Source: Fibrobacterota bacterium (lineage in GTDB: Bacteria; Fibrobacterota; Chitinivibrionia; Chitinivibrionales; FEN-1185). Taken from it: a stretch of DNA of 64,000 bases. Shown piece by piece: positions 36,573 to 46,311 of this stretch; the first letter of the stretch is position 1; every line of letters begins with the position of its first letter. The DNA lies in NCBI GenBank assembly GCA_003165595.1, contig PLWQ01000013.1, positions 62,001 through 126,000 of the forward strand, in the 5' to 3' direction. Made by a program: the position numbers and the translations under genes. The notes beneath the pieces were generated by a model that saw only the letters and a program-made list of their open reading frames with translations, did no database searches and was not told where the DNA came from.

Positions 36573-36582
36573 TTTGTCGGTT

Positions 36583-36765
36583 ATCAAAATTGCATTTCAG
36601 GTGCCGGGGAATACCGGTGAGAATCCGGAGCGGACCTGCCACTGTAATCCCAGTACCGATTCCGTAGAATCGGGGACTGTCAATCCAAGCCACTGTTCCA
36701 TTTGGAATGGGAAGGCGACAGTACCGGGAGAGCCAGGAGACCTGCCTGAATGCTTTCAATTCTTT
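36583..36765 (+). promoter_or_regulatory. Cobalamin (AdoCbl) riboswitch
   Basis: This has the conserved blocks of the class: CCGGTGAGAATCCGGAGCGG, then CTGCCACTGTAA, and the B12 box AGCCAGGAGACCTGCC at 36731-36746. The core ends about 10 bases before the start of the BtuB-like gene, so ligand binding could hide its translation start. It should switch off the corrinoid uptake operon when adenosylcobalamin is plentiful. Confidence 0.95.
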
Positions 36766-36774
36766 TGAGCCCTC

Positions 36775-38913
36775 ATGGTACGGGGTTCAGGGGGGGCTTC
36801 GTTGCATTCTCTTCCCGGGTTCGTTCGTGCGGGGCGCATATCCGTCCTGCTGCTCTGTATGGTACCATATCGGCTTCTTGCCGATAGGAGTGACACGCTC
36901 GTCTCCGATACATCTGCCGCTATTTCGGGAAGCTCCTTGAGGCAGGATTCCGACAAGTCCGCGACGTCTCACCCGCAACGCGCCGAGAAAAGCTCTGATA
37001 CGTCAAGCGTGGTGATCGTTGACAAAATGGTCGTTACCGCCGGCAGGATCAGGGAATACACGCCGTCAAAAGTAACGCTGGATGCGAAAAATTTCTCGGG
37101 CAGGTACATCGATCTGCAATCGGTGCTTGAAACGGTATCCGGCGTAACCATCAGTAACATGGGCGGTTTCGGGCATTATGCGGATGTGTCGATCCGGGGA
37201 AGCTCATCAAGTCAGGTACAGGTGTTTCTTGACGGAATTCCGCTCAACGGCGCAACCGGATACGCGGTGGATGTTTCAAAGATACCTTTGCCGACTTTGC
37301 AAACCATATCGATTTACAAAAGCACGCCATCGATCGAGTTTTTCGGGGAAAATGCTGGAGGGGTCATCAGCCTTTCAACGGATGTAACCAAGGATGCCAC
37401 CACCGCCTCCGTGGAAGTCGGATCATTCGGTTATCGGGAAGGGAGCGCAATAATCAGTAAAGCGCTGGGTCCTATGGTCCATCGGCTGTCTGTTAATTAT
37501 GGGTGGGCGGACAACAATTATCCCTATACGGACAGAGTCATTACGCTCGGACCAACGGTGGCAACTGACGATTCGCAGAAAACCATGGACAACAATTTCT
37601 TTTCAACGTTTTCTTCAATATATTCAAATACCTTCACAATCAATAACCATAATAAGCTAACTTCGCAGTTTTCCGCAATAGTCACCGACGAAGGAATTTT
37701 CTACTTTCCCCAGGCAGGTTCCAACGACGGGAACATACGAAACACAAAATTCTCATTGATTGAATCATACACGAACACGATTAATTCAAACGTTTCCCTC
37801 ACGTTAACCGCAAAAGGGAAAACCGAAGACGACCTGCTGCGAAGGTTCAAGCCTTTTTATTTGACGGCAAGCCCTAATGAGGCAACTTTACATGATATCA
37901 ACCAGCCCTATGGATCGTTGGAAAGCATACTTAAGGGTAATATCAACAATCATGTTGCACTCACCGGCGTATTGACCGCGAGCTATGATGGGTATGATTA
38001 CAACAACCTTCTTGTTCCTGCGGGCCAAACGCAGCCGCGCTATTTCCGCCTCACCGAAAAAACAGGGGTAGAGGCAAAAATCTATTTCTGCAACAATCTT
38101 TCCGGTAGAATCGGCGGTCTTTACAGATACGAAATAGATTCTACCAACGACAGCATAACCTCGTTCGGTTCCTCTGTGCCCTATGGCAAGTCCACAAAAA
38201 ACGGGTTCCCGGCCGGGTTCTCCGAACTGCATTACCAGCTATTCGATTGCCTGGGACTTCTCGCGAGCGTTCAATACGGCAGCCGCAGCCCCGGATTTTC
38301 CGAGAAGTTTTCCGAAGGCGCAAATGTTTCGGGGAATCCGACCCTCCGCCCGGAAACACGGTTGGAATACAATGCGGGTCTATCCTTCCTGAAGCCGTAC
38401 ATGGCCGTATCGGCGGCGTTTTTCGCAAGTACGACGAAAGATAAGATCATTTACACAATGACGTCGCACATGTTTGTTCCGAGGAACGTGTCCAATGTCG
38501 ACGGATGGGGCTTGGAAAACGATATCACGTTAACGCCGTTTTCGTGGGTATCTGTTGTCAATTCGCTGACGTACATGGAAAACACCATGCATTCGAGTTC
38601 CATCATTTCCTGGAACGGAAAAGACGAACCGCTGCTTCCGCGCTTTACGGACAATCTGAATATCAAATTCATGTACAAAAATTTTTATGCGGGCCATTCT
38701 GCCCGCTTCGCTTCCCGCTATTTCACGGACTTCGACAATACCGTTCCGGTGTATAAGGCCAGGCCGCAATTGGACGCCTCCATCGGTTGCACGCTGGGCG
38801 AGCACTTTGATATTTCGTACCGGATCGAAAACTATCTCGATGTTCAGGATTACAATTTTGAGAGGCCGTTGCCGGGACTTGCGCAGTATGCCGTATTGAA
38901 ATGCCGATTGTAA
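36775..38913 (+). CDS. btuB: TonB-dependent outer-membrane receptor for cobalamin
   Basis: A 712-residue protein directly downstream of a cobalamin riboswitch. After a hydrophobic leader and a Ser-rich spacer come a plug domain (~80-200; VVTAGRI, SVLETVSGVTI, VSIRGSSSSQVQVFLDGIPLN, ENAGGVISL) and a beta-barrel with alternating strands to a C-terminal strand (AQYAVLKCRL). This is the BtuB/TonB-dependent receptor layout. It should carry corrinoids across the outer membrane using TonB energy. The start codon is not certain: there is no clear Shine-Dalgarno at 36775, and a GTG near 36826 is an alternative. It is followed by a beta-propeller protein and BtuFDC. Confidence 0.92.
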   Translation: MVRGSGGASLHSLPGFVRAGRISVLLLCMVPYRLLADRSDTLVSDTSAAISGSSLRQDSDKSATSHPQRAEKSSDTSSVVIVDKMVVTAGRIREYTPSKVTLDAKNFSGRYIDLQSVLETVSGVTISNMGGFGHYADVSIRGSSSSQVQVFLDGIPLNGATGYAVDVSKIPLPTLQTISIYKSTPSIEFFGENAGGVISLSTDVTKDATTASVEVGSFGYREGSAIISKALGPMVHRLSVNYGWADNNYPYTDRVITLGPTVATDDSQKTMDNNFFSTFSSIYSNTFTINNHNKLTSQFSAIVTDEGIFYFPQAGSNDGNIRNTKFSLIESYTNTINSNVSLTLTAKGKTEDDLLRRFKPFYLTASPNEATLHDINQPYGSLESILKGNINNHVALTGVLTASYDGYDYNNLLVPAGQTQPRYFRLTEKTGVEAKIYFCNNLSGRIGGLYRYEIDSTNDSITSFGSSVPYGKSTKNGFPAGFSELHYQLFDCLGLLASVQYGSRSPGFSEKFSEGANVSGNPTLRPETRLEYNAGLSFLKPYMAVSAAFFASTTKDKIIYTMTSHMFVPRNVSNVDGWGLENDITLTPFSWVSVVNSLTYMENTMHSSSIISWNGKDEPLLPRFTDNLNIKFMYKNFYAGHSARFASRYFTDFDNTVPVYKARPQLDASIGCTLGEHFDISYRIENYLDVQDYNFERPLPGLAQYAVLKCRL

Positions 38914-38999
38914 AAGACTGCGGTGCGGGATCAAAAACTGTTTCTCGATTATATGTGCCGGATTCATAAATAACCAACCCCTTGAAAGGAAGGAAATCC

Positions 39000-40673
39000 A
39001 TGAAACACATTGCGGGACTAATCATTGCGGTCGCCGGTATTTCAATCTTTGCTCAAATTAATATTACCGGTACGGTAACCGAAGCAATACACGGCTCACC
39101 CGTGGCAGGCGTTGTGGTGACCCTCAAGAGCGGCGCCGTAGGTGCGGACACAAGCGATGCGAAAGGACAATATAAGTTGACAACAGCGACTCTGGTCCGG
39201 GGTCGCCCGGCCCAGGCCACTCTTTGGTCGTCGGCAAGAATCTGCGGCAATGTGTTGCGTTTTGCGGTATCGGACGGGGCGCCGCTTTCGATAGAGATAT
39301 TTAACGCACACGGCACAAAGTGCTTGACGCTGTTTCGCAACAGCAGTCCGGCAAAAGGCGACTATACCGTAGGTCTTGCCTGTGGCGGCCTGGCGGAGGG
39401 AATATATCTGATTCGTGTCACCCAAGGTTCCAAACAGACAGTCCTTCGTACAACAGTTCTATCCAAGGGGGTTCCCACGGTGGGCATTGCGCCCGATCGC
39501 GCCGGCGCCGGACTTGCGAAAAAGTCGGATGCAGCAGTCAATGACACGCTGCTGTTTGCTAAAGCCGGTTTTAAGACCGCTGCGGTCCCGATTTCGGCAT
39601 ATACCGGATCAACCAATGCCGTTCTTCTGGATTTGGCGGCATCCCAGTCAATTGTGTCGGTCGGCATTTCCGCTGACTATTCCGCGGGAAACATGGGCCA
39701 GTACGACATCTTGAAGGGAACGTCGAATGCCAACCTTCTCACGATTTATTCCGACAACGATGTTCGCGCGTTCGATGGTTGCTTGTACGTGCTTGAGCGG
39801 TATGGGAAGGATAATCTGCTTAAGATTACCGGTTCAACTATTTCCAACTCAACCGTTGCCTACGAAAAAAACATCGGGGCATCAGTTAACATACAGGACA
39901 TAGCATGCATCGATACAACCAAGGCATATATCACTCAACTTGGAAGCGCCCAGATAGTTATTTTCAATCCTTCAACGGGCCTGAAATCAAGCAAGACTAT
40001 CGATCTGTCCGCTTTTGATACGTACGCGGTAACAGACAGCGCCGACGTTGTTCCCTACATGACCAGGGCATTGCTCTATAACGGTAAAGTGTATGTCGCC
40101 TGTCAACGACTTCATGCGCCTGTTGGCGGGTTCATTCAAGCGGCCGATACGAGCAAAATCGTCGTGATCAACGCAACGACGGACAGCGTCGAAAAGGCCA
40201 TTAACCTGCTGTACAAAGACCCGCAGGAGTTGTACATTTTCAATGGAAAGCTCTATGTTGCCAGTGTGGGCGTATGGGGCGTTGGAGATGCGGGCATCGA
40301 GGCAATCGATCTGGCGACGGACGCGAGTGCCGGGTCGGTGGTTACCGAATCGGAATTTTCGGGCGATGTAGCATCGGTTGTGGTGGTGAGTGACACGAAG
40401 GGATATGCGGTTATCTCGGATTTGTCGACCTTCACGACGTCATTGTATTCCTTCAATCCCCAGGCGAAAACCGTCGGTAGCAAAATCACCGGTATTGACG
40501 CGCCCTGCAGCGGGCATATTGCCTTTGACGGCACGTATGTGTATGTGGGTGACCGCAGCAGCACATCTCCGGGAATCGTGGTTATCAATCCTGCGACTGA
40601 TGCGAAGGTTGGCACGACAAAGAACATCGGTTTGCCACCCAATTCTCTGGCGTTGCTGGAAACAACCAAATAA
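39000..40673 (+). CDS. Surface beta-propeller protein of the B12 operon (BtuG-like role inferred)
   Basis: ATG 39000 follows AAGGAAGGAA. The 557-residue protein has a signal peptide, a carboxypeptidase-regulatory-like domain (GTVTEAIHGSPVAGVVVTLK) interrupted by a FlgD/Por-type domain (IEIFNAHGTKCLTLF...GIYLIRVTQG) that resumes at LLFAKAGFKTAAVPISAYTG, and then ~340 residues of YncE-like propeller blades (VRAFDGCLYVLERYG, LLYNGKVYVACQRL, LYIFNGKLYVASVG, IAFDGTYVYVGDRS). In Bacteroidota a propeller protein, BtuG, sits next to BtuB and binds B12 at the surface. The gene order and fold suggest the same role here, but with a different N-terminus and no lipobox. Confidence 0.75.
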   Translation: MKHIAGLIIAVAGISIFAQINITGTVTEAIHGSPVAGVVVTLKSGAVGADTSDAKGQYKLTTATLVRGRPAQATLWSSARICGNVLRFAVSDGAPLSIEIFNAHGTKCLTLFRNSSPAKGDYTVGLACGGLAEGIYLIRVTQGSKQTVLRTTVLSKGVPTVGIAPDRAGAGLAKKSDAAVNDTLLFAKAGFKTAAVPISAYTGSTNAVLLDLAASQSIVSVGISADYSAGNMGQYDILKGTSNANLLTIYSDNDVRAFDGCLYVLERYGKDNLLKITGSTISNSTVAYEKNIGASVNIQDIACIDTTKAYITQLGSAQIVIFNPSTGLKSSKTIDLSAFDTYAVTDSADVVPYMTRALLYNGKVYVACQRLHAPVGGFIQAADTSKIVVINATTDSVEKAINLLYKDPQELYIFNGKLYVASVGVWGVGDAGIEAIDLATDASAGSVVTESEFSGDVASVVVVSDTKGYAVISDLSTFTTSLYSFNPQAKTVGSKITGIDAPCSGHIAFDGTYVYVGDRSSTSPGIVVINPATDAKVGTTKNIGLPPNSLALLETTK

Positions 40674-40734
40674 AGAGTATTCATAAGGGCGGTTCGCTGC
40701 GGCGAGCCGCCGCTTGTCCAACGTGGGAACCGAT

Positions 40735-41640
40735 ATGAAACCTTTCTGCTCATTACATATCTTGGCGGTAGGCATTTTGATTGCAACCGTTATTGGATGC
40801 TCGCATAACCGGCAGGAGCAAGCGCCGGTCATGCCGAAACGGATTATTTCCCTGGCGCCAAGCATAACGGAAACGCTGTTTGCTCTGGGGCTTGGCGATC
40901 GGATTGTCGGTATTACCAGATATTGTACGTATCCGGCGCAAACAAAAAGCATTGAAAAAGTAGGCGGTTACTCCGATGCCAATCTTGAAAAGATCATTGT
41001 TTTGCGCCCCGACCTTGTCGTGCTCTTGCGGGAGCATGAAAAACAACAAAGCTACCTGAATCGATTCGGGGTAAGCACGCTTATGATTGACAATTCAACC
41101 TGCGCGGCGGTTTGCAGTTCCTTTGCTCTTATCGGAAGGCGTTGCGGCGTGACTCATGCATCCGACAGCTTGATTGGATTGTTCCATGTGCAATTGACAC
41201 AACCTACTCACGGGCAAACAGCACGCCCAAAGGTGCTGTTATGCGTGGGACGCGACAGCCCCGGCGCGGGGGGAATAAAAAGCATCTATGCGGCAGGGAG
41301 AGGATCGTATTATAACGACCTTGTTGAATCTGCCGGAGGAACAAATGCCTTTTCCGACAGCGCGCCAGCCTACCCCCGCTTATCGGCGGAAGGAATTCTG
41401 ACACTCTTGCCCGACATCGTGATCGATGTTGCTCCGGCAATGGGCAACTACAATTGCAGTTCGCTTGTTGCAGATTGGAATTCAATGAACCGAATCCCTG
41501 CTGTAAATAACAAGAGGGTTTACTGCATGGGAAAAGATTATGCAACCGTGCCCGGGCCGCGCATGCTTCTGCTTCTCGACGACCTGAAGCGAATTATCGC
41601 GGATACCAACGGGACCTATCGGGAACACCGTTCCTTATGA
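40735..41640 (+). CDS. btuF: Cobalamin ABC transporter substrate-binding lipoprotein
   Basis: Start ATG 40735 gives a lipoprotein signal ending in VIGC. The ~301-residue protein is a cluster-A-type binding protein of the BtuF/FhuD class: RIISLAPSITETLFALGLGDRIVG, TRYCTYP, VGGYSDANLEKIIVLRPDLVV and the long linking helix. It would bind corrinoids in the periplasm and pass them to BtuC. Its stop overlaps the start of the ATPase gene (ATGA), so translation is probably coupled. Confidence 0.93.
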   Translation: MKPFCSLHILAVGILIATVIGCSHNRQEQAPVMPKRIISLAPSITETLFALGLGDRIVGITRYCTYPAQTKSIEKVGGYSDANLEKIIVLRPDLVVLLREHEKQQSYLNRFGVSTLMIDNSTCAAVCSSFALIGRRCGVTHASDSLIGLFHVQLTQPTHGQTARPKVLLCVGRDSPGAGGIKSIYAAGRGSYYNDLVESAGGTNAFSDSAPAYPRLSAEGILTLLPDIVIDVAPAMGNYNCSSLVADWNSMNRIPAVNNKRVYCMGKDYATVPGPRMLLLLDDLKRIIADTNGTYREHRSL

Positions 41641-42446
41641 ATACACCGACACCTATGATTCAAGTCCACGACGTCCGCGCCGTGTACGGTCCCCATGAGG
41701 TATTGCAAGGAGTTTCTCTTGCCGTGGAACGAAATCAGCGCTGGGCCATCATCGGACGCAACGGCGCCGGAAAATCCACCCTTATCAAGCTTATCGCGGG
41801 ATTATTGCATCCGAACAAAGGAGCGCTTCAGGTCAACGGCATGGAGGCGCGGCGATATTCTGCACGCAAGCGGGCGCAGATCATGGCGTATGTGCCGCAG
41901 AAGCCCGACGGCGTAATCCCTTATTCGGTGCATGATTTTGTCATGCTTGGTCGCTACAGCGCAATGGGACTTATGGGCATGCCGTCGCACAAAGATCGCG
42001 AAGCCGTCCGCGAAGCAATTGATATATGCGATATCCATCATCTGGCCGACCGCCTGATGAGCACGCTGTCCGGCGGCGAATTGCAACGGGTGCTTCTCGC
42101 GGGCGCAGTCGCTCAGCAAACGCCGCTGCTGTTACTCGATGAGCCGACCACATCTCTCGACCCGGCTCACGAACGGCTCTTTTTTGAAGCCCTCGGCCGT
42201 CTTCATGAACAGCGGGAATTGACGATTGTCATGGTAACGCACGATATCAATACCGCTCTTGTCCAGTGTACGCATATAGGTGCGCTGCTAAACGGGCATT
42301 TTATCTTTGCCGGCAGTGCCGGTGAATTCAAGAAACAATGTCCCGCGGTCCTTGAGGAAATATTCAAGGTTCGCTTTGAACGCTATGTCTGGAGTGAGGG
42401 AAAGTCGGAAGCGTTTGGCGCGTGGGGGGTGTCATGTCCGGAATAA
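41637..42446 (+). CDS. btuD: Cobalamin ABC transporter ATPase
   Basis: A 269-residue ATPase with Walker A GRNGAGKST, signature LSGGELQR, Walker B LLLLDEPTTSLD and switch His VTHD. The sequence type is that of FecE/BtuD iron and corrinoid importers. It overlaps btuF by 4 bp and btuC by 13 bp, so the three form one translated unit that powers uptake of corrinoids through the inner membrane. Confidence 0.93.
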   Translation: MNTPTPMIQVHDVRAVYGPHEVLQGVSLAVERNQRWAIIGRNGAGKSTLIKLIAGLLHPNKGALQVNGMEARRYSARKRAQIMAYVPQKPDGVIPYSVHDFVMLGRYSAMGLMGMPSHKDREAVREAIDICDIHHLADRLMSTLSGGELQRVLLAGAVAQQTPLLLLDEPTTSLDPAHERLFFEALGRLHEQRELTIVMVTHDINTALVQCTHIGALLNGHFIFAGSAGEFKKQCPAVLEEIFKVRFERYVWSEGKSEAFGAWGVSCPE

Positions 42447-43429
42447 AGAACCCTGTGGGTGCAGTGGCGATTTTATCGCTCGCGACAATAGTAACGCTCA
42501 TTGTTTGTCCAATGATCGGGATCAAATGGATTTTGCCTTCAAATATTGCGAATGACAGCGACCTTCGATTTGTCTTCCTGACAATGAGACTTCCACGAAC
42601 GCTTGTTGCATTTTTCGCAGGAGGCGGGCTTGCCGTTGCGGGAATGATTTACCAGGCCCTATTCCGCAATCCCCTTGCCGATCCGTATACGCTGGGCGTT
42701 TCGAGCGGAGCGTCGCTTGGCGCTGCGTTGTGCATCGTTCTTGGAGCCGGAGGCTCGGCTTTTGGACTGTCGATCGTGACCCTCGGAGCTTTCGCCGGAG
42801 CCGTAGGATCGATACTCATTATTTACACCTTTGCCTGGTCGAAAGAAAGTAACTCCAGCACACTGCTTCTCGCCGGCGTTATCGTGGCGACATTGTGCTC
42901 AGGCCTTATCATGTTTCTAAATTTTATCGGCGGGCTGAACCAGTCTTTCCAGATTCTCCGCTGGATAATGGGGGGCGTTGACGGGGCAAGCTACTCGCTG
43001 TTCTTTATTATGGTGGTGCCGCTGGCTGCATTCTTCGCCATCGCCGGGATACTCATGCCGCAGCTCGACCAGTTCTTGACAGGGGACAATATCGCGCATT
43101 CGCGTGGAATAAACATCCGGGCAAGCAGGAATCTGTTTATCGTCATCACCGCCCTGGCGGTAGGGGCTATTGTTGCGATATGCGGCCCCATAGGATTCAT
43201 TGGGATACTCGCGCCCCACGCGGGCCGTATGATGATTCCCGGAGTGCGGCACCGGCTTCTTTCTCTATGCTCATTCTTATTGGGTGGATCCTTTCTGGTT
43301 CTTGCCGATACGTTGGCGAGATCCGTTGTGCCCCCGTCCGAAATCCCTGTCGGAATAATTACTGCGATGTTGGGAGGACCATTCTTCTTGCTCGTGCTAT
43401 TCCGAAGCAAAAATCGGTTGTTGATGTAG
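42434..43429 (+). CDS. btuC: Cobalamin ABC transporter permease
   Basis: ATG 42434 has GGGGGGT just upstream and is preferred to the GTG at 42422. The ~331-residue protein has about ten hydrophobic helices and FecCD-family landmarks: RLPRTLVAFFAGGGLAVAG, FRNPLADPYTLGVSSGASLGA, GPIGFIGILAPH and PSEIPVGIITAMLGGPFFL. It forms the inner-membrane channel with BtuD and docks BtuF. Confidence 0.94.
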   Translation: MSGIKNPVGAVAILSLATIVTLIVCPMIGIKWILPSNIANDSDLRFVFLTMRLPRTLVAFFAGGGLAVAGMIYQALFRNPLADPYTLGVSSGASLGAALCIVLGAGGSAFGLSIVTLGAFAGAVGSILIIYTFAWSKESNSSTLLLAGVIVATLCSGLIMFLNFIGGLNQSFQILRWIMGGVDGASYSLFFIMVVPLAAFFAIAGILMPQLDQFLTGDNIAHSRGINIRASRNLFIVITALAVGAIVAICGPIGFIGILAPHAGRMMIPGVRHRLLSLCSFLLGGSFLVLADTLARSVVPPSEIPVGIITAMLGGPFFLLVLFRSKNRLLM

Positions 43430-43440
43430 GTAAGATTTCG

Positions 43441-44973
43441 ATGAACAACACAAAGAGCATAATGATACAAGGCACCGCAAGTTCAAGCGGGAAATCGCTG
43501 ATTGTTACCGCGCTCTGTCGCATCTTGCATCAGGATGGATATCGGGTTGCGCCGTTCAAAGCCCAGAATATGTCGAACAACTCCTTTGTAACAGCCTCCG
43601 GGCTTGAAATGGGCCGCGCGCAGGTCGTGCAGGCGTATGCGGCCGGTCTTGAGCCTGACGTGAGAATGAACCCCGTGCTTTTGAAACCGTCAGGTGGTAC
43701 AGGAGCACAGGTTGTTCTTAAAGGCAAACCGGAGTTTACGATGAACGCGAAAGAATGGTATGAAACCAGGGAACGGTTACGAGGTACAATTCGCCAGTGT
43801 TATGACTCGCTTGCGGCCGAATACGAAATGATTGTTATCGAGGGGGCCGGCAGTCCAGCCGAAATCAATCTCAAAAAGAACGACATTGTCAACATGGGCA
43901 TGGCAAAGATGGCGGATGCTCCTGTTCTTATCGTGGGTGATATCGATCGCGGTGGAGTATTTGCGTCGCTGGTAGGGACTATGCAACTGCTCGATCCCGA
44001 TGAACGTGCTCGTGTCAAGGGATTCATCATCAACAAATTCCGCGGCGACGCGGGGCTGCTCAAGCCTGGCCTCGACGAGTTGGAAAAACTCGCCGGAGTT
44101 CCTGTTCTGGGGGTCGTACCGTGGCTAGACCACGCGATTGACGATGAAGACGGCGTGGCGGAGCGATTTACCAGAGAACATTCCGGCTCGGCGGACGTTG
44201 ATATTTGCGTAGTACGCCTACCGCATATTTCCAATTTCACCGACTTCATTCCGCTTGAAGCAGTGCCCGGCGTCAGGGTACGCTGGTGCGAAACGAAAGA
44301 ATCAATCGGATCGCCCGACCTTCTCATTCTTCCCGGCACAAAGGCGACTATCGTCGATTTGCAGGCGGTAAGAAAAGCCGGGATAGCGGAGGAGATCATT
44401 CAATATGCACATAGTGGCGGCACCGTTGTAGGCATATGCGGCGGGTTTCAGATGCTTGGCGGCACGATAGCGGATCCGGCGCATGTCGAAAGCGCGGCGG
44501 TAAGCGAAAAGGGACTGGATCTGCTCGACATGGAAACGGTATTTAATGCTGAAAAAAGGACAGCTCAGGTGACCGCCGCGATAGACGGAACATGCTCATG
44601 GTTGCTTGCAGGCATTGATCGCGTCGAAGTGCGCGGGTATGAAATTCACATGGGGGAAAGTCGCTATGGGCCGTCAAGCGTGCCTTTCACCCGCGCTGTC
44701 GATGGATTGGGGCAGGGAAGCGTGACCGGTGCTGCGGATGCGTCGGGCCGCATTCTGGGCACCTATCTTCACGGTTTGTTCGATACCGGCGTTGTGGTAT
44801 CGGGTATGGTAAACGCGATAAGGGTTAAAAAGGGTCTGCCGGTACTTGATGCTGCTGTTGTCGACCGTCAAAGATTGCTCGTTAATGATCTGGATCGCCT
44901 TGCAACGGTGTGCAGAAATAGCCTTAACATGAATCGTATATACGAAATTATTCGGGAACCGGCGGTAGTGTGA
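43441..44973 (+). CDS. cobQ: Cobyric acid synthase (glutamine-hydrolysing)
   Basis: ATG 43441 (11 bp after btuC) gives 510 residues. The N-terminal ATP-binding domain starts with IQGTASSSGKS and has APFKAQNMSNNSFV and LLKPSGG. The C-terminal glutamine amidotransferase domain has the nucleophile Cys in GICGGFQMLGG and a YEIHMGES/YLHGLFD ending. The enzyme amidates four side chains of adenosylcobyrinic acid a,c-diamide to make adenosylcobyric acid. Its place behind the transporter suggests that imported incomplete corrinoids are finished in the cell. Other late genes (cobD, cobU, cobS, cobT) are not in the window. Confidence 0.95.
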   Translation: MNNTKSIMIQGTASSSGKSLIVTALCRILHQDGYRVAPFKAQNMSNNSFVTASGLEMGRAQVVQAYAAGLEPDVRMNPVLLKPSGGTGAQVVLKGKPEFTMNAKEWYETRERLRGTIRQCYDSLAAEYEMIVIEGAGSPAEINLKKNDIVNMGMAKMADAPVLIVGDIDRGGVFASLVGTMQLLDPDERARVKGFIINKFRGDAGLLKPGLDELEKLAGVPVLGVVPWLDHAIDDEDGVAERFTREHSGSADVDICVVRLPHISNFTDFIPLEAVPGVRVRWCETKESIGSPDLLILPGTKATIVDLQAVRKAGIAEEIIQYAHSGGTVVGICGGFQMLGGTIADPAHVESAAVSEKGLDLLDMETVFNAEKRTAQVTAAIDGTCSWLLAGIDRVEVRGYEIHMGESRYGPSSVPFTRAVDGLGQGSVTGAADASGRILGTYLHGLFDTGVVVSGMVNAIRVKKGLPVLDAAVVDRQRLLVNDLDRLATVCRNSLNMNRIYEIIREPAVV

Positions 44974-45097: not shown

Positions 45098-45799
45098 ATG
45101 ACGAAAAACTCCTCTGAACAAGTTTCACGATTTTTTTGTTCTTGGAGCGGCGGCAAGGATTCGTGCCTGTCATTGTACCGCGCTCTAAAACGCGGATATT
45201 CCTGTGCCTCGCTTTTTACCATGATTGACGAGTCCGGAAAGCACTCACGGTCGCATGGATTGCTCCCGGAATCGCTCAAAGCGCAGGCTGAGGCGATGCA
45301 AATTCCATTGCGTACAGCCGCTGCAACATGGGGAAACTATGAGTCGCAATTCAAGGAGCAGGCGGCACTCTATAGAAACGAAAATGTTCGGCACGGCGTA
45401 TTCGGCGATATCGATCTCGAACCGCATCGCGAATGGGTTGAGCGGGTGTGCCGTGAGTCTGGGATTACTGCTCATTTGCCGCTCTGGAAAGGCGTTCGCC
45501 GAACACTGGTTCGGGAATTCATTGATGCCGGATTTAAGGCGGTCATCGTGGTAGTGAATACGAAGAAGATGCCCGACCGGTTTTTGGGACGTTTGATTGA
45601 CGCCGCGCTTGTTGATGAGCTTGAAGCAATCGGAGTTGATGCCTGCGGTGAGAACGGGGAATTCCATACCTTTGTTTACGACGGGCCGTTGTTTAAAAAG
45701 GGGCTCATCTTTGCTAAAGAAGATGAGATTGCAATTGAAGGATATGCATTTCTGCGCATCACTGTTTCGGGCAATTCCGACAGGGGGGTATGTTCATGA
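45098..45799 (+). CDS. Dph6-like PP-loop ATP pyrophosphatase in the B12 operon
   Basis: A 233-residue protein (start ATG 45098 with GGAGG upstream; ATGs at 45077 and 45080 are alternatives). The PP-loop is SWSGGKDSCLSLYRA. The C-terminal part has GENGEFHTFVYDGPLF, the second hallmark of the diphthine-ammonia ligase (Dph6/MJ0570) family. These enzymes activate a carboxylate with ATP to make an amide. Bacteria lack diphthamide, so the substrate must differ. Being between cobQ and cobO, with a 4-bp overlap into the latter, it may act on a corrinoid or its precursor. That is inference. Confidence 0.82.
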   Translation: MTKNSSEQVSRFFCSWSGGKDSCLSLYRALKRGYSCASLFTMIDESGKHSRSHGLLPESLKAQAEAMQIPLRTAAATWGNYESQFKEQAALYRNENVRHGVFGDIDLEPHREWVERVCRESGITAHLPLWKGVRRTLVREFIDAGFKAVIVVVNTKKMPDRFLGRLIDAALVDELEAIGVDACGENGEFHTFVYDGPLFKKGLIFAKEDEIAIEGYAFLRITVSGNSDRGVCS

Positions 45800-46311
45800 A
45801 AGGATACGTCCAGGTGTACACCGGCAACGGCAAAGGAAAGACGACCGCAGCGATCGGATTGGCGATCCGGGCGGCAGGGGCGGGGCTGCCGGTTTTCTTT
45901 GCTCAATTCGTCAAAGGCATGAAATACAGCGAAATCGGTGCACTTGAAAGATATGCCGATTTGATTGCTGTTCGACAATATGGTCGGGGCTGCTTTATTA
46001 CCCGTGAAGCCGATAAAGAAGATGTAGAACAATCACGGAAAGGGCTTGCTGATAGTGCAGAAGCGCTAAAGACGGGCAATTATCGATTGGTAATACTGGA
46101 CGAGGCATGCATTGCCATTCATTACAAACTGTTCAGCATCGATGATCTCCTCCAAGCGATTGACAGAAGAAAAGCTGATTGCGAAGTCGTAGTAACCGGC
46201 CGTTATGCACCCCAGGAGCTGTTGGATATGGCTGATCTGGTGACGGAAATGAAGGAGGTTAAGCACTATTATGCGAAAGGCGTTCAAGCTCGGACGGGAA
46301 TCGAGCGATGA
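45796..46311 (+). CDS. cobO: Corrinoid adenosyltransferase (CobO/BtuR type)
   Basis: ATG 45796 overlaps the previous stop (ATGA) and is well spaced from GGGGGGT. The 171-residue protein has the P-loop YTGNGKGKTTAAIGLAIRAAG, FAQFVKGMKYSE, LVILDEACIAI and VVTGRYAPQEL. This is the CobO/BtuR family. It transfers the adenosyl group from ATP to reduced corrinoid to form the coenzyme, and so supplies the riboswitch ligand. A GC-rich hairpin follows. Confidence 0.94.
   Translation: MKGYVQVYTGNGKGKTTAAIGLAIRAAGAGLPVFFAQFVKGMKYSEIGALERYADLIAVRQYGRGCFITREADKEDVEQSRKGLADSAEALKTGNYRLVILDEACIAIHYKLFSIDDLLQAIDRRKADCEVVVTGRYAPQELLDMADLVTEMKEVKHYYAKGVQARTGIER

What the first reader, a model, noticed from the sequence alone, without database searches (positions are those of the whole stretch)
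45098..45799. Dph6-like ATP-dependent amide ligase between cobQ and cobO
Dph6 makes diphthamide in archaea and eukaryotes, which bacteria lack. This homologue has both family motifs (SGGKDS and GENGEFHTF) and is locked into the B12 operon by a 4-bp overlap with cobO. It may add or activate an amide on a corrinoid, or process a lower-ligand or aminopropanol part in salvage.
Basis: partly seen in the sequence, partly recalled or inferred. Interest (0 to 1): 0.55.

Follow-up and report, generated by a model that had tools for sequence, protein, structure and literature searches.

The report
Dph6-like enzyme in B12 salvage operon
A bacterial relative of the enzyme that finishes diphthamide in archaea sits in a vitamin B12 uptake operon; the family was already predicted in 2012 to act in B12 salvage, but no later pathway step that this prediction needs was found in this genome, so what the enzyme does there is still open.

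Summary
Window 45098-45799 (+) encodes a 233-aa PF01902 (DUF71/COG2102) protein in an apparent operon with TonB receptor, BtuF, BtuD, BtuC, cobyric acid synthase (CbiP) and CobO behind a cobalamin riboswitch. It is not filed as Dph6: it misses the Dph6 cut-off and has His for Dph6's Glu188, like the published DUF71-B12 subgroup. The B12 link is thus in print, as a prediction that these proteins stand in for CbiZ and supply cobyric acid to CbiB. New evidence strains that model: the window genome (98% complete) has CbiP and this gene but no match to CbiB, CbiZ, CobU, CobS or CbiC; CbiZ co-occurs with the gene in 11 of 50 chosen genomes; a CbiR-like gene lies by cobU in 5 of 7 genomes of the phylum with this gene. 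B12 linkage recurs across the tree, yet only 20 of 80 close relatives show it within 6 kb. Best reading: an AMP-forming enzyme acting on an imported corrinoid, perhaps amidating a side chain. Reaction untested.

The parts
36582..36763 (+). cobalamin riboswitch aptamer (RF00174) at the head of the operon
   Evidence: 77.2 bits against a gathering score of 31.5, full length 1-189
36775..38913 (+). TonB-dependent receptor, BtuB-like by position
   Evidence: Pfam Plug and TonB barrel; TIGR01779 B12 receptor 80.2 bits, far under its cut-off of 599.7, so not proven BtuB
38982..40673 (+). exported protein of unknown family between receptor and BtuF, conserved in the phylum's B12 operons
   Evidence: weak sorting-domain hits under cut-off; homologues in the same place in G005, G018, G020, G022
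40714..41640 (+). BtuF-like binding protein
   Evidence: PF01497; best named model BtuF NF002894 89.3 bits, under its cut-off of 234
41637..42446 (+). BtuD-like ABC ATPase
   Evidence: PF00005; no named model over its cut-off among those shown
42422..43429 (+). BtuC-like permease
   Evidence: PF01032 FecCD, 268.3 bits; BtuC NF003001 201.7 bits, under its cut-off of 334
43441..44973 (+). cobyric acid synthase CbiP/CobQ, 510 aa, P-loop and glutaminase motifs present
   Evidence: NF001989 617.8 bits over cut-off 273; motif positions
45098..45799 (+). the finding: DUF71-B12 type N-type ATP pyrophosphatase
   Evidence: PF01902 E=3.5e-46; model pLDDT 92.9; best structures 2d13, 3rjz, 3rk1
45796..46311 (+). 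CobO/BtuR corrinoid adenosyltransferase, ATGA overlap with the finding
   Evidence: PF02572 and NF004637; start chosen from sequence

Best explanation
The gene is a member of the published DUF71-B12 subgroup and works in corrinoid salvage under a cobalamin riboswitch, between import (BtuFCD) and adenosylation (CobO). Shown here: fold, ATP-site residues, subgroup motif, operon position, riboswitch upstream of the operon. Inferred: it transfers AMP to a carbonyl or carboxylate of an imported corrinoid and an amine attacks. The step I think likeliest is amidation of a corrin side chain, alone or together with CbiP, which does not need the nucleotide-loop assembly enzymes that were not found in this genome. 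My odds: corrinoid-related substrate about 0.75; the whole statement, side-chain amidation included, about 0.3.
For: PF01902 membership. ATP-site residues of PF0828 kept (S17 G18 G19 K20 D21 H53 T191) and Glu188 replaced by His190; His190 invariant in 55 aligned relatives. Cobalamin riboswitch and operon. Same order TonB-exported protein-BtuF-BtuD-BtuC-(CbiP)-(CbiB)-gene-CobO in G005, G018 and G020. B12 linkage in several separate lineages, at least 10 changes on the tree, with different partners. The window genome keeps CbiP and this gene while CbiB, CbiZ, CbiC, CobS and CobU gave no match; it has 31 B12-binding-domain matches. G179 (L070) also has the gene beside a BtuFCD-CbiP operon, with no CbiB or CobS found.
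Against: No activity shown for any member. Two of seven clade A genomes of the phylum (G017, G022) have no CbiP over cut-off, and G032 has CbiP without this gene. 60 of 80 close relatives show no B12 gene within 6 kb. In G179 the gene is divergent from the riboswitch-led operon. Absence of CbiB, CobU and CobS from a 98% complete assembly is strong but not proof; CobT and CbiA were not searched. 34 of 50 chosen genomes with the gene do have CbiB and 43 of 50 have CobS, as the older model expects.
Confidence: 0.3

Rival explanations
1. Published hypothesis: DUF71-B12 does the job of bacterial CbiZ, cleaving pseudo-B12 (or opening another salvage route) to adenosylcobyric acid, which CbiB then rebuilds.
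For: Published neighbourhoods and distribution (PMC3541065). CbiB in 34 of 50 and CobS in 43 of 50 chosen genomes with the gene. No clade A genome of the phylum has CbiZ, 0 of 7, but this is not significant (p=1).
Against: The window genome gave no match to CbiB, CobU or CobS. CbiZ co-occurs in 11 of 50 genomes, ten of them bacterial, one of these split over two frames. CbiR-like genes lie beside cobU in 5 of 7 clade A genomes of the phylum. This coexistence is only suggestive: Mok 2020 reports that nearly 20% of CbiR taxa also have CbiZ homologues. Amide hydrolysis needs no ATP (general chemistry).
Confidence: 0.25
2. CbiB-like: the protein joins aminopropanol or its phosphate to cobyric acid, as a soluble AMP-forming ligase in place of the membrane enzyme CbiB.
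For: The chemistry fits an ATP-dependent amide ligase (inference). G020 has CbiC, CbiP, CobU, CobT and CobS homologues and this gene but no CbiB match. 11 of 50 genomes have the gene and CobS without CbiB.
Against: 34 of 50 genomes hold both. G023, G027 and G165 have CbiP, CobU and CobS without CbiB and without this gene, so CbiB absence does not track it. In the window genome later steps are missing too.
Confidence: 0.1
3. The substrate is not a corrinoid; B12 linkage is a side effect in some lineages.
For: 60 of 80 close relatives have no B12 gene found within 6 kb, including all 21 loci from named Bacillaceae/Caryophanaceae genera. Seven of 50 chosen genomes lack a CobS match, six of them unlinked. 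Clade B paralogues share the ENGEFH motif, and none of six such loci (L022-L027, several cut by contig ends) shows a labelled B12 gene.
Against: Recurrent linkage with different B12 partners in separate phyla; riboswitch in 10 of the 17 loci searched, and downstream in 4 of 9 unlinked loci; CobS in 25 of 31 unlinked genomes. A clade-B-like fragment in G155 lies near BtuC and BtuD homologues.
Confidence: 0.2
4. Relic: in this lineage the nucleotide-loop genes were lost and CbiP and this gene are leftovers of a decaying operon.
For: The 124-bp gap sits where G005 has cbiB and a second btuF-like gene. Such decay exists elsewhere: Jeotgalibacillus campisalis keeps a 94-aa piece of CbiP and no CbiB. 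Congener G031 has neither gene.
Against: Both frames are intact with their motifs, and the window protein keeps the residues invariant in the family.
Confidence: 0.1

Closest known systems
DUF71-B12 subgroup of DUF71/COG2102 (de Crecy-Lagard et al. 2012, PMC3541065; e.g. PF0295)
   Same: PP-loop, ENGEFH motif, neighbours btuFCD and cob genes
   Different: Window genome gave no match to CbiB, the enzyme to which the published role would deliver its product
Dph6 diphthine-ammonia ligase (TIGR03679; PF0828 structures 3rk0/3rk1)
   Same: Fold and ATP site
   Different: Under the equivalog cut-off, 111.2 against 197.3; Glu188 is His190; bacterial B12 context
CbiZ adenosylcobinamide amidohydrolase (PF01955)
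   Same: Proposed equivalent role in salvage
   Different: No sequence match; PF01902 was the one Pfam hit of the window protein at E<=0.001; CbiZ itself co-occurs with the gene in 11 of 50 genomes
CbiR cobamide remodelling hydrolase (PMC7733943, passages read)
   Same: CbiR-like genes lie in salvage loci of the same phylum
   Different: AP endonuclease 2 family enzyme that makes Cbi-P and alpha-ribazole, unrelated to PF01902

Membership tests
DUF71/COG2102 (PF01902) | Match to the Pfam model over its cut-off | tested here: met
   157.9 bits against 23.2
DUF71/COG2102 (PF01902) | N-type ATP pyrophosphatase fold with SGGKD loop | tested here: met
   AF2 pLDDT 92.9; eight best Foldseek rows are Pyrococcus DUF71 chains
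DUF71-B12 subgroup | ENGEF/YH188 in place of EGGE/DxE188 | tested here: met
   GENGEFHT at residue 184 (definition); the motif also occurs in clade B, so it does not suffice
DUF71-B12 subgroup | Gene beside B12 transport or salvage genes | tested here: met
   BtuF, BtuD, BtuC, CbiP, CobO and riboswitch
DUF71-B12 subgroup | Genome has CbiB but not CbiZ (published distribution) | tested here: not met
   Neither CbiB nor CbiZ found in G000; this is a distribution trend of the paper, not a sequence criterion
Dph6 | Equivalog score | tested here: not met
   TIGR03679 111.2 bits, cut-off 197.3
Dph6 | Glu at position 188 of PF0828 | tested here: not met
   His190 in the window protein
Dph6 | Diphthamide pathway (Dph2, Dph5) in the genome | not tested
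   Bacteria are held to lack it (PMC3541065); not searched in G000
CbiZ (functional equivalent) | Cleavage of pseudo-B12 or cobinamide to cobyric acid | not testable with these tools
   Needs biochemistry

The most novel reading that the evidence does not exclude
DUF71-B12 is a corrin side-chain amidating (repair) enzyme: with CbiP it restores primary amides on imported, partly hydrolysed cobamides, so that bacteria without any nucleotide-loop assembly can still use damaged B12. This would be a vitamin damage-repair route distinct from cobamide remodelling.
Probability: 0.15. Interest if true: 0.65.

Novelty: new member of a known kind. Interest (0 to 1): 0.32.

Why it matters
The subgroup's reaction was left open in 2012, and I found no later test in the papers held. 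Genomes like this one, which keep the gene although CbiB, CobU and CobS were not found, narrow the possible substrates to a short list that can be assayed. They also show that calling such proteins diphthine-ammonia ligase would mislead. If side-chain repair is right, it adds a new way for B12 auxotrophs to use the environmental corrinoid pool.

Tried and rejected
Dph6 function: rejected on the equivalog score and the Glu188-to-His change. CbiB replacement as the general role: not preferred, because 34 of 50 genomes hold CbiB too. The ENGEFH motif as a test for the B12 subgroup: it also occurs in clade B paralogues. A link to methionine-type ABC transporters in some Clostridia (L064, L072, L105; sequences, family names recalled): seen in one related group, not pursued. 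Significance of the CbiZ non-overlap inside the phylum: none. A PDB relative of the exported protein at 38982-40673: none. The promoter scan found 7 promoter-like sites against a shuffled mean of 10.8, and 24 terminator-like ones against 13.6; none was used.

Limits. The 80 loci are the best of 167 relatives found with two peptide patterns, rich in Bacillota. I chose 50 of the 80 for genome searches, 19 linked and 31 unlinked, not at random; L034-L037 were left out because the phylum searches cover those genomes. No completeness is given for the 50 genomes, so absences there are weaker. Alignment A2 holds 53 of the 80 loci. 18 of 80 were dropped before the tree as near-copies or short; five undetermined rows and the clade B rows were left out of the number of changes, which has no shuffled control. 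Neighbour genes were labelled by profiles grown from a few sequences of this phylum, so divergent or PduO-type neighbours can be missed and linkage undercounted; three loci (L084, L089, L096) were too short to judge and several others are cut on one side. Fisher values are not corrected for kinship. A note says 15 linked and 22 in all; recounted it is 13 by transport or biosynthesis genes, 4 by cobO only, 3 by TonB receptor with riboswitch: 20 within 6 kb. L060 and L075 are linked only within 10 kb; both were counted as linked. CbiR-like genes were named by homology to one PF01261 protein and by position; no CbiR model was used, and G000 was not searched for CbiR, CobT or CbiA.

Full report
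Observation. The frame 45098-45799 (+) is intact and belongs to PF01902 at E=3.5e-46. The locus reads: cobalamin riboswitch 36582-36763, TonB receptor, an exported protein, BtuF, BtuD, BtuC, cobyric acid synthase CbiP/CobQ, the finding, CobO. CbiP is over its curated cut-off, and CobO over one of two; the receptor and the three transport genes are named by Pfam family and position, since the named models score under their cut-offs. Gaps are 68 bp or less, or overlaps, except 124 bp before the finding. The 4-bp overlap with cobO holds for the start at 45796.

Identity. The archaeal Dph6 equivalog model gives 111.2 bits, well under its cut-off of 197.3. Against PF0828 the ATP-site residues are kept, but Glu188, which the 2012 paper predicts to be involved in catalysis, aligns with His190. 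In an alignment of 55 sequences His190 is invariant. An AlphaFold2 model (pLDDT 92.9, pTM 0.89) has as its eight best Foldseek rows chains of two Pyrococcus DUF71 proteins (2d13, 3rjz, 3rk0, 3rk1; TMq 0.76-0.83, 25-28% identity); two more rows at E<=0.001 are far weaker (TMq 0.38-0.45). A sequence profile finds the same two proteins and no other at E<=0.01.

Prior art. De Crecy-Lagard et al. 2012 (PMC3541065; I read the abstract, sections 12 and 13, and found passages) split DUF71 into Dph6 and DUF71-B12, gave the ENGEF/YH188 signature, reported 75/102 members next to B12 transporter genes and 18/102 next to cbiB, and proposed a role like that of bacterial CbiZ. In the held open-access library I saw no later experimental test (search listings; most subscription papers and preprints are not held). 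A 2016 review table still gives the group as function unknown, B12 salvage (PMC5041015, passage).

The phylum. Of 167 genomes 14 carry PF01902. By alignment seven are close to the window protein (clade A: G000, G005, G017, G018, G020, G022, G033; G017 is a fragment, and G017 and G033 reach contig ends) and seven look like a second type (clade B: G002, G003, G021, G034, G039, G166, and a fragment in G155). The tree, with G003, G017 and G155 left out, separates the two types with 100% SH-aLRT in a quick search. In G000, G005, G018 and G020 the order is TonB, exported protein, BtuF, BtuD, BtuC, then CbiP and CbiB in part, the gene, CobO; G022 has TonB, exported protein, gene; G017 has gene, CobO, CbiR-like, CobU. 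Clade A genomes hold CobU 6/7, CobS 5/7, CbiP 5/7, CbiB 3/7, CbiZ 0/7; the other 160 hold 13, 24, 15, 14 and 8. Genomes G005, G017, G018, G022 and G033 have beside cobU a homologue of the PF01261 protein of G005. By position and family I read it as CbiR, which cuts cobamides to Cbi-P and alpha-ribazole (PMC7733943, passages). None was seen in the 9 kb around cobU of G020.

The window genome. G000 (98% complete, 42 contigs) has CbiP and the finding but no match to CbiB, CbiZ, CbiC, CobS or CobU. It has 31 B12-binding-domain matches at E<=0.001, two in frames of 1,246 and 1,265 aa, so it very probably uses cobamides. Its congener G031 has 27 such matches and no match to the finding, CbiP, CbiB, CobS, CobU or CbiZ. 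G032, of the same family but 79% complete, has CbiP without CbiB, CobS, CobU or the finding. So in G000 the pair CbiP plus finding stands without nucleotide-loop assembly. A CbiZ-like product, adenosylcobyric acid, would be a dead end there unless genes are missing from the assembly.

Wider survey. 167 relatives were found in named genomes and the best 80 kept. Within 6 kb, 20 of 80 are linked to B12 genes: 13 by transport or biosynthesis genes, 4 by cobO only, 3 by a TonB receptor with a cobalamin riboswitch. All 21 loci from named Bacillaceae/Caryophanaceae genera are unlinked. Linkage needs at least 10 changes on the tree and involves different partners, which argues for a shared corrinoid-related role rather than one inherited cluster. 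In 50 chosen genomes CbiB is found in 34, CobS in 43, CbiZ in 11; by group, linked 15/19, 18/19, 3/19 and unlinked 19/31, 25/31, 8/31. Ten of the 11 with CbiZ are bacteria, one with CbiZ split over two frames (domain from titles). The strict anti-correlation published for bacteria therefore does not hold in this sample. G179 (L070) resembles the window genome: the gene lies beside a riboswitch-led TonB-CbiP-BtuF-BtuC-BtuD operon, though divergent from it, and no CbiB or CobS was found.

Mechanism. N-type ATP pyrophosphatases transfer AMP to a carbonyl or carboxylate oxygen, which a nucleophile then displaces (family knowledge, recalled). The operon places the protein between uptake and adenosylation of corrinoids. 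Three chemically sensible choices are amidation of a corrin carboxylate, joining of aminopropanol to cobyric acid (CbiB-like), and breaking of the nucleotide-loop amide (CbiZ-like). That CbiB, CobU and CobS were not found here speaks against the last two in this organism; coexistence with CbiB in most chosen genomes speaks against a CbiB replacement in general. Coexistence with CbiZ or CbiR weakens the CbiZ reading only a little, since CbiR and CbiZ homologues themselves co-occur in nearly 20% of CbiR taxa. Side-chain amidation fits the retained partner CbiP, but nothing measured shows it, and two of seven clade A genomes have no CbiP over cut-off. I hold it only as the least strained reading.

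Verdict. A sound observation and a sensible reading, but the family and its B12 link are already published. The added value is a set of genomes, this one included, that the published function does not easily explain.

Noticed in passing
L154:9173-10000 and L110:9321-10166: Short cobyric acid synthases (275 and 281 aa) that match only the synthetase-domain models and not the glutaminase domain GATase_3; their ends look by eye like the end of full-length CbiP. Both genomes also carry the Dph6-like gene.
   Followed up: partly
window 38982-40673: Exported protein between TonB receptor and BtuF, conserved in that place in G005, G018, G020 and G022; weak sorting-domain hits under cut-off, no PDB match. 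A role like the surface B12 binder BtuG of Bacteroides is a guess from position (recalled).
   Followed up: partly
L018:10242-11036, L118:3563-4351, and the cobU loci L028, L115, L116, L150: CbiR-like PF01261 genes beside cobU in Fibrobacterota, also in G004, which has no PF01902 match.
   Followed up: partly
L152:8044-9510: BtuD-CbiZ fusion (ABC_tran plus CbiZ domains) in Jeotgalibacillus campisalis, in an operon where CbiP is reduced to a 94-aa piece.
   Followed up: no
L022-L027 and L029 (clade B): A second DUF71 type with the same ENGEFH motif but no labelled B12 gene near it in L022-L027; a fragment in G155 (L029) lies near BtuC and BtuD homologues. Role unknown.
   Followed up: no
G000 as a whole: 31 B12-binding-domain matches, most in frames of about 430-660 aa (size of B12 radical-SAM proteins, not checked), in a genome where no nucleotide-loop assembly gene tested (CbiB, CobU, CobS) was found.
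   Followed up: no
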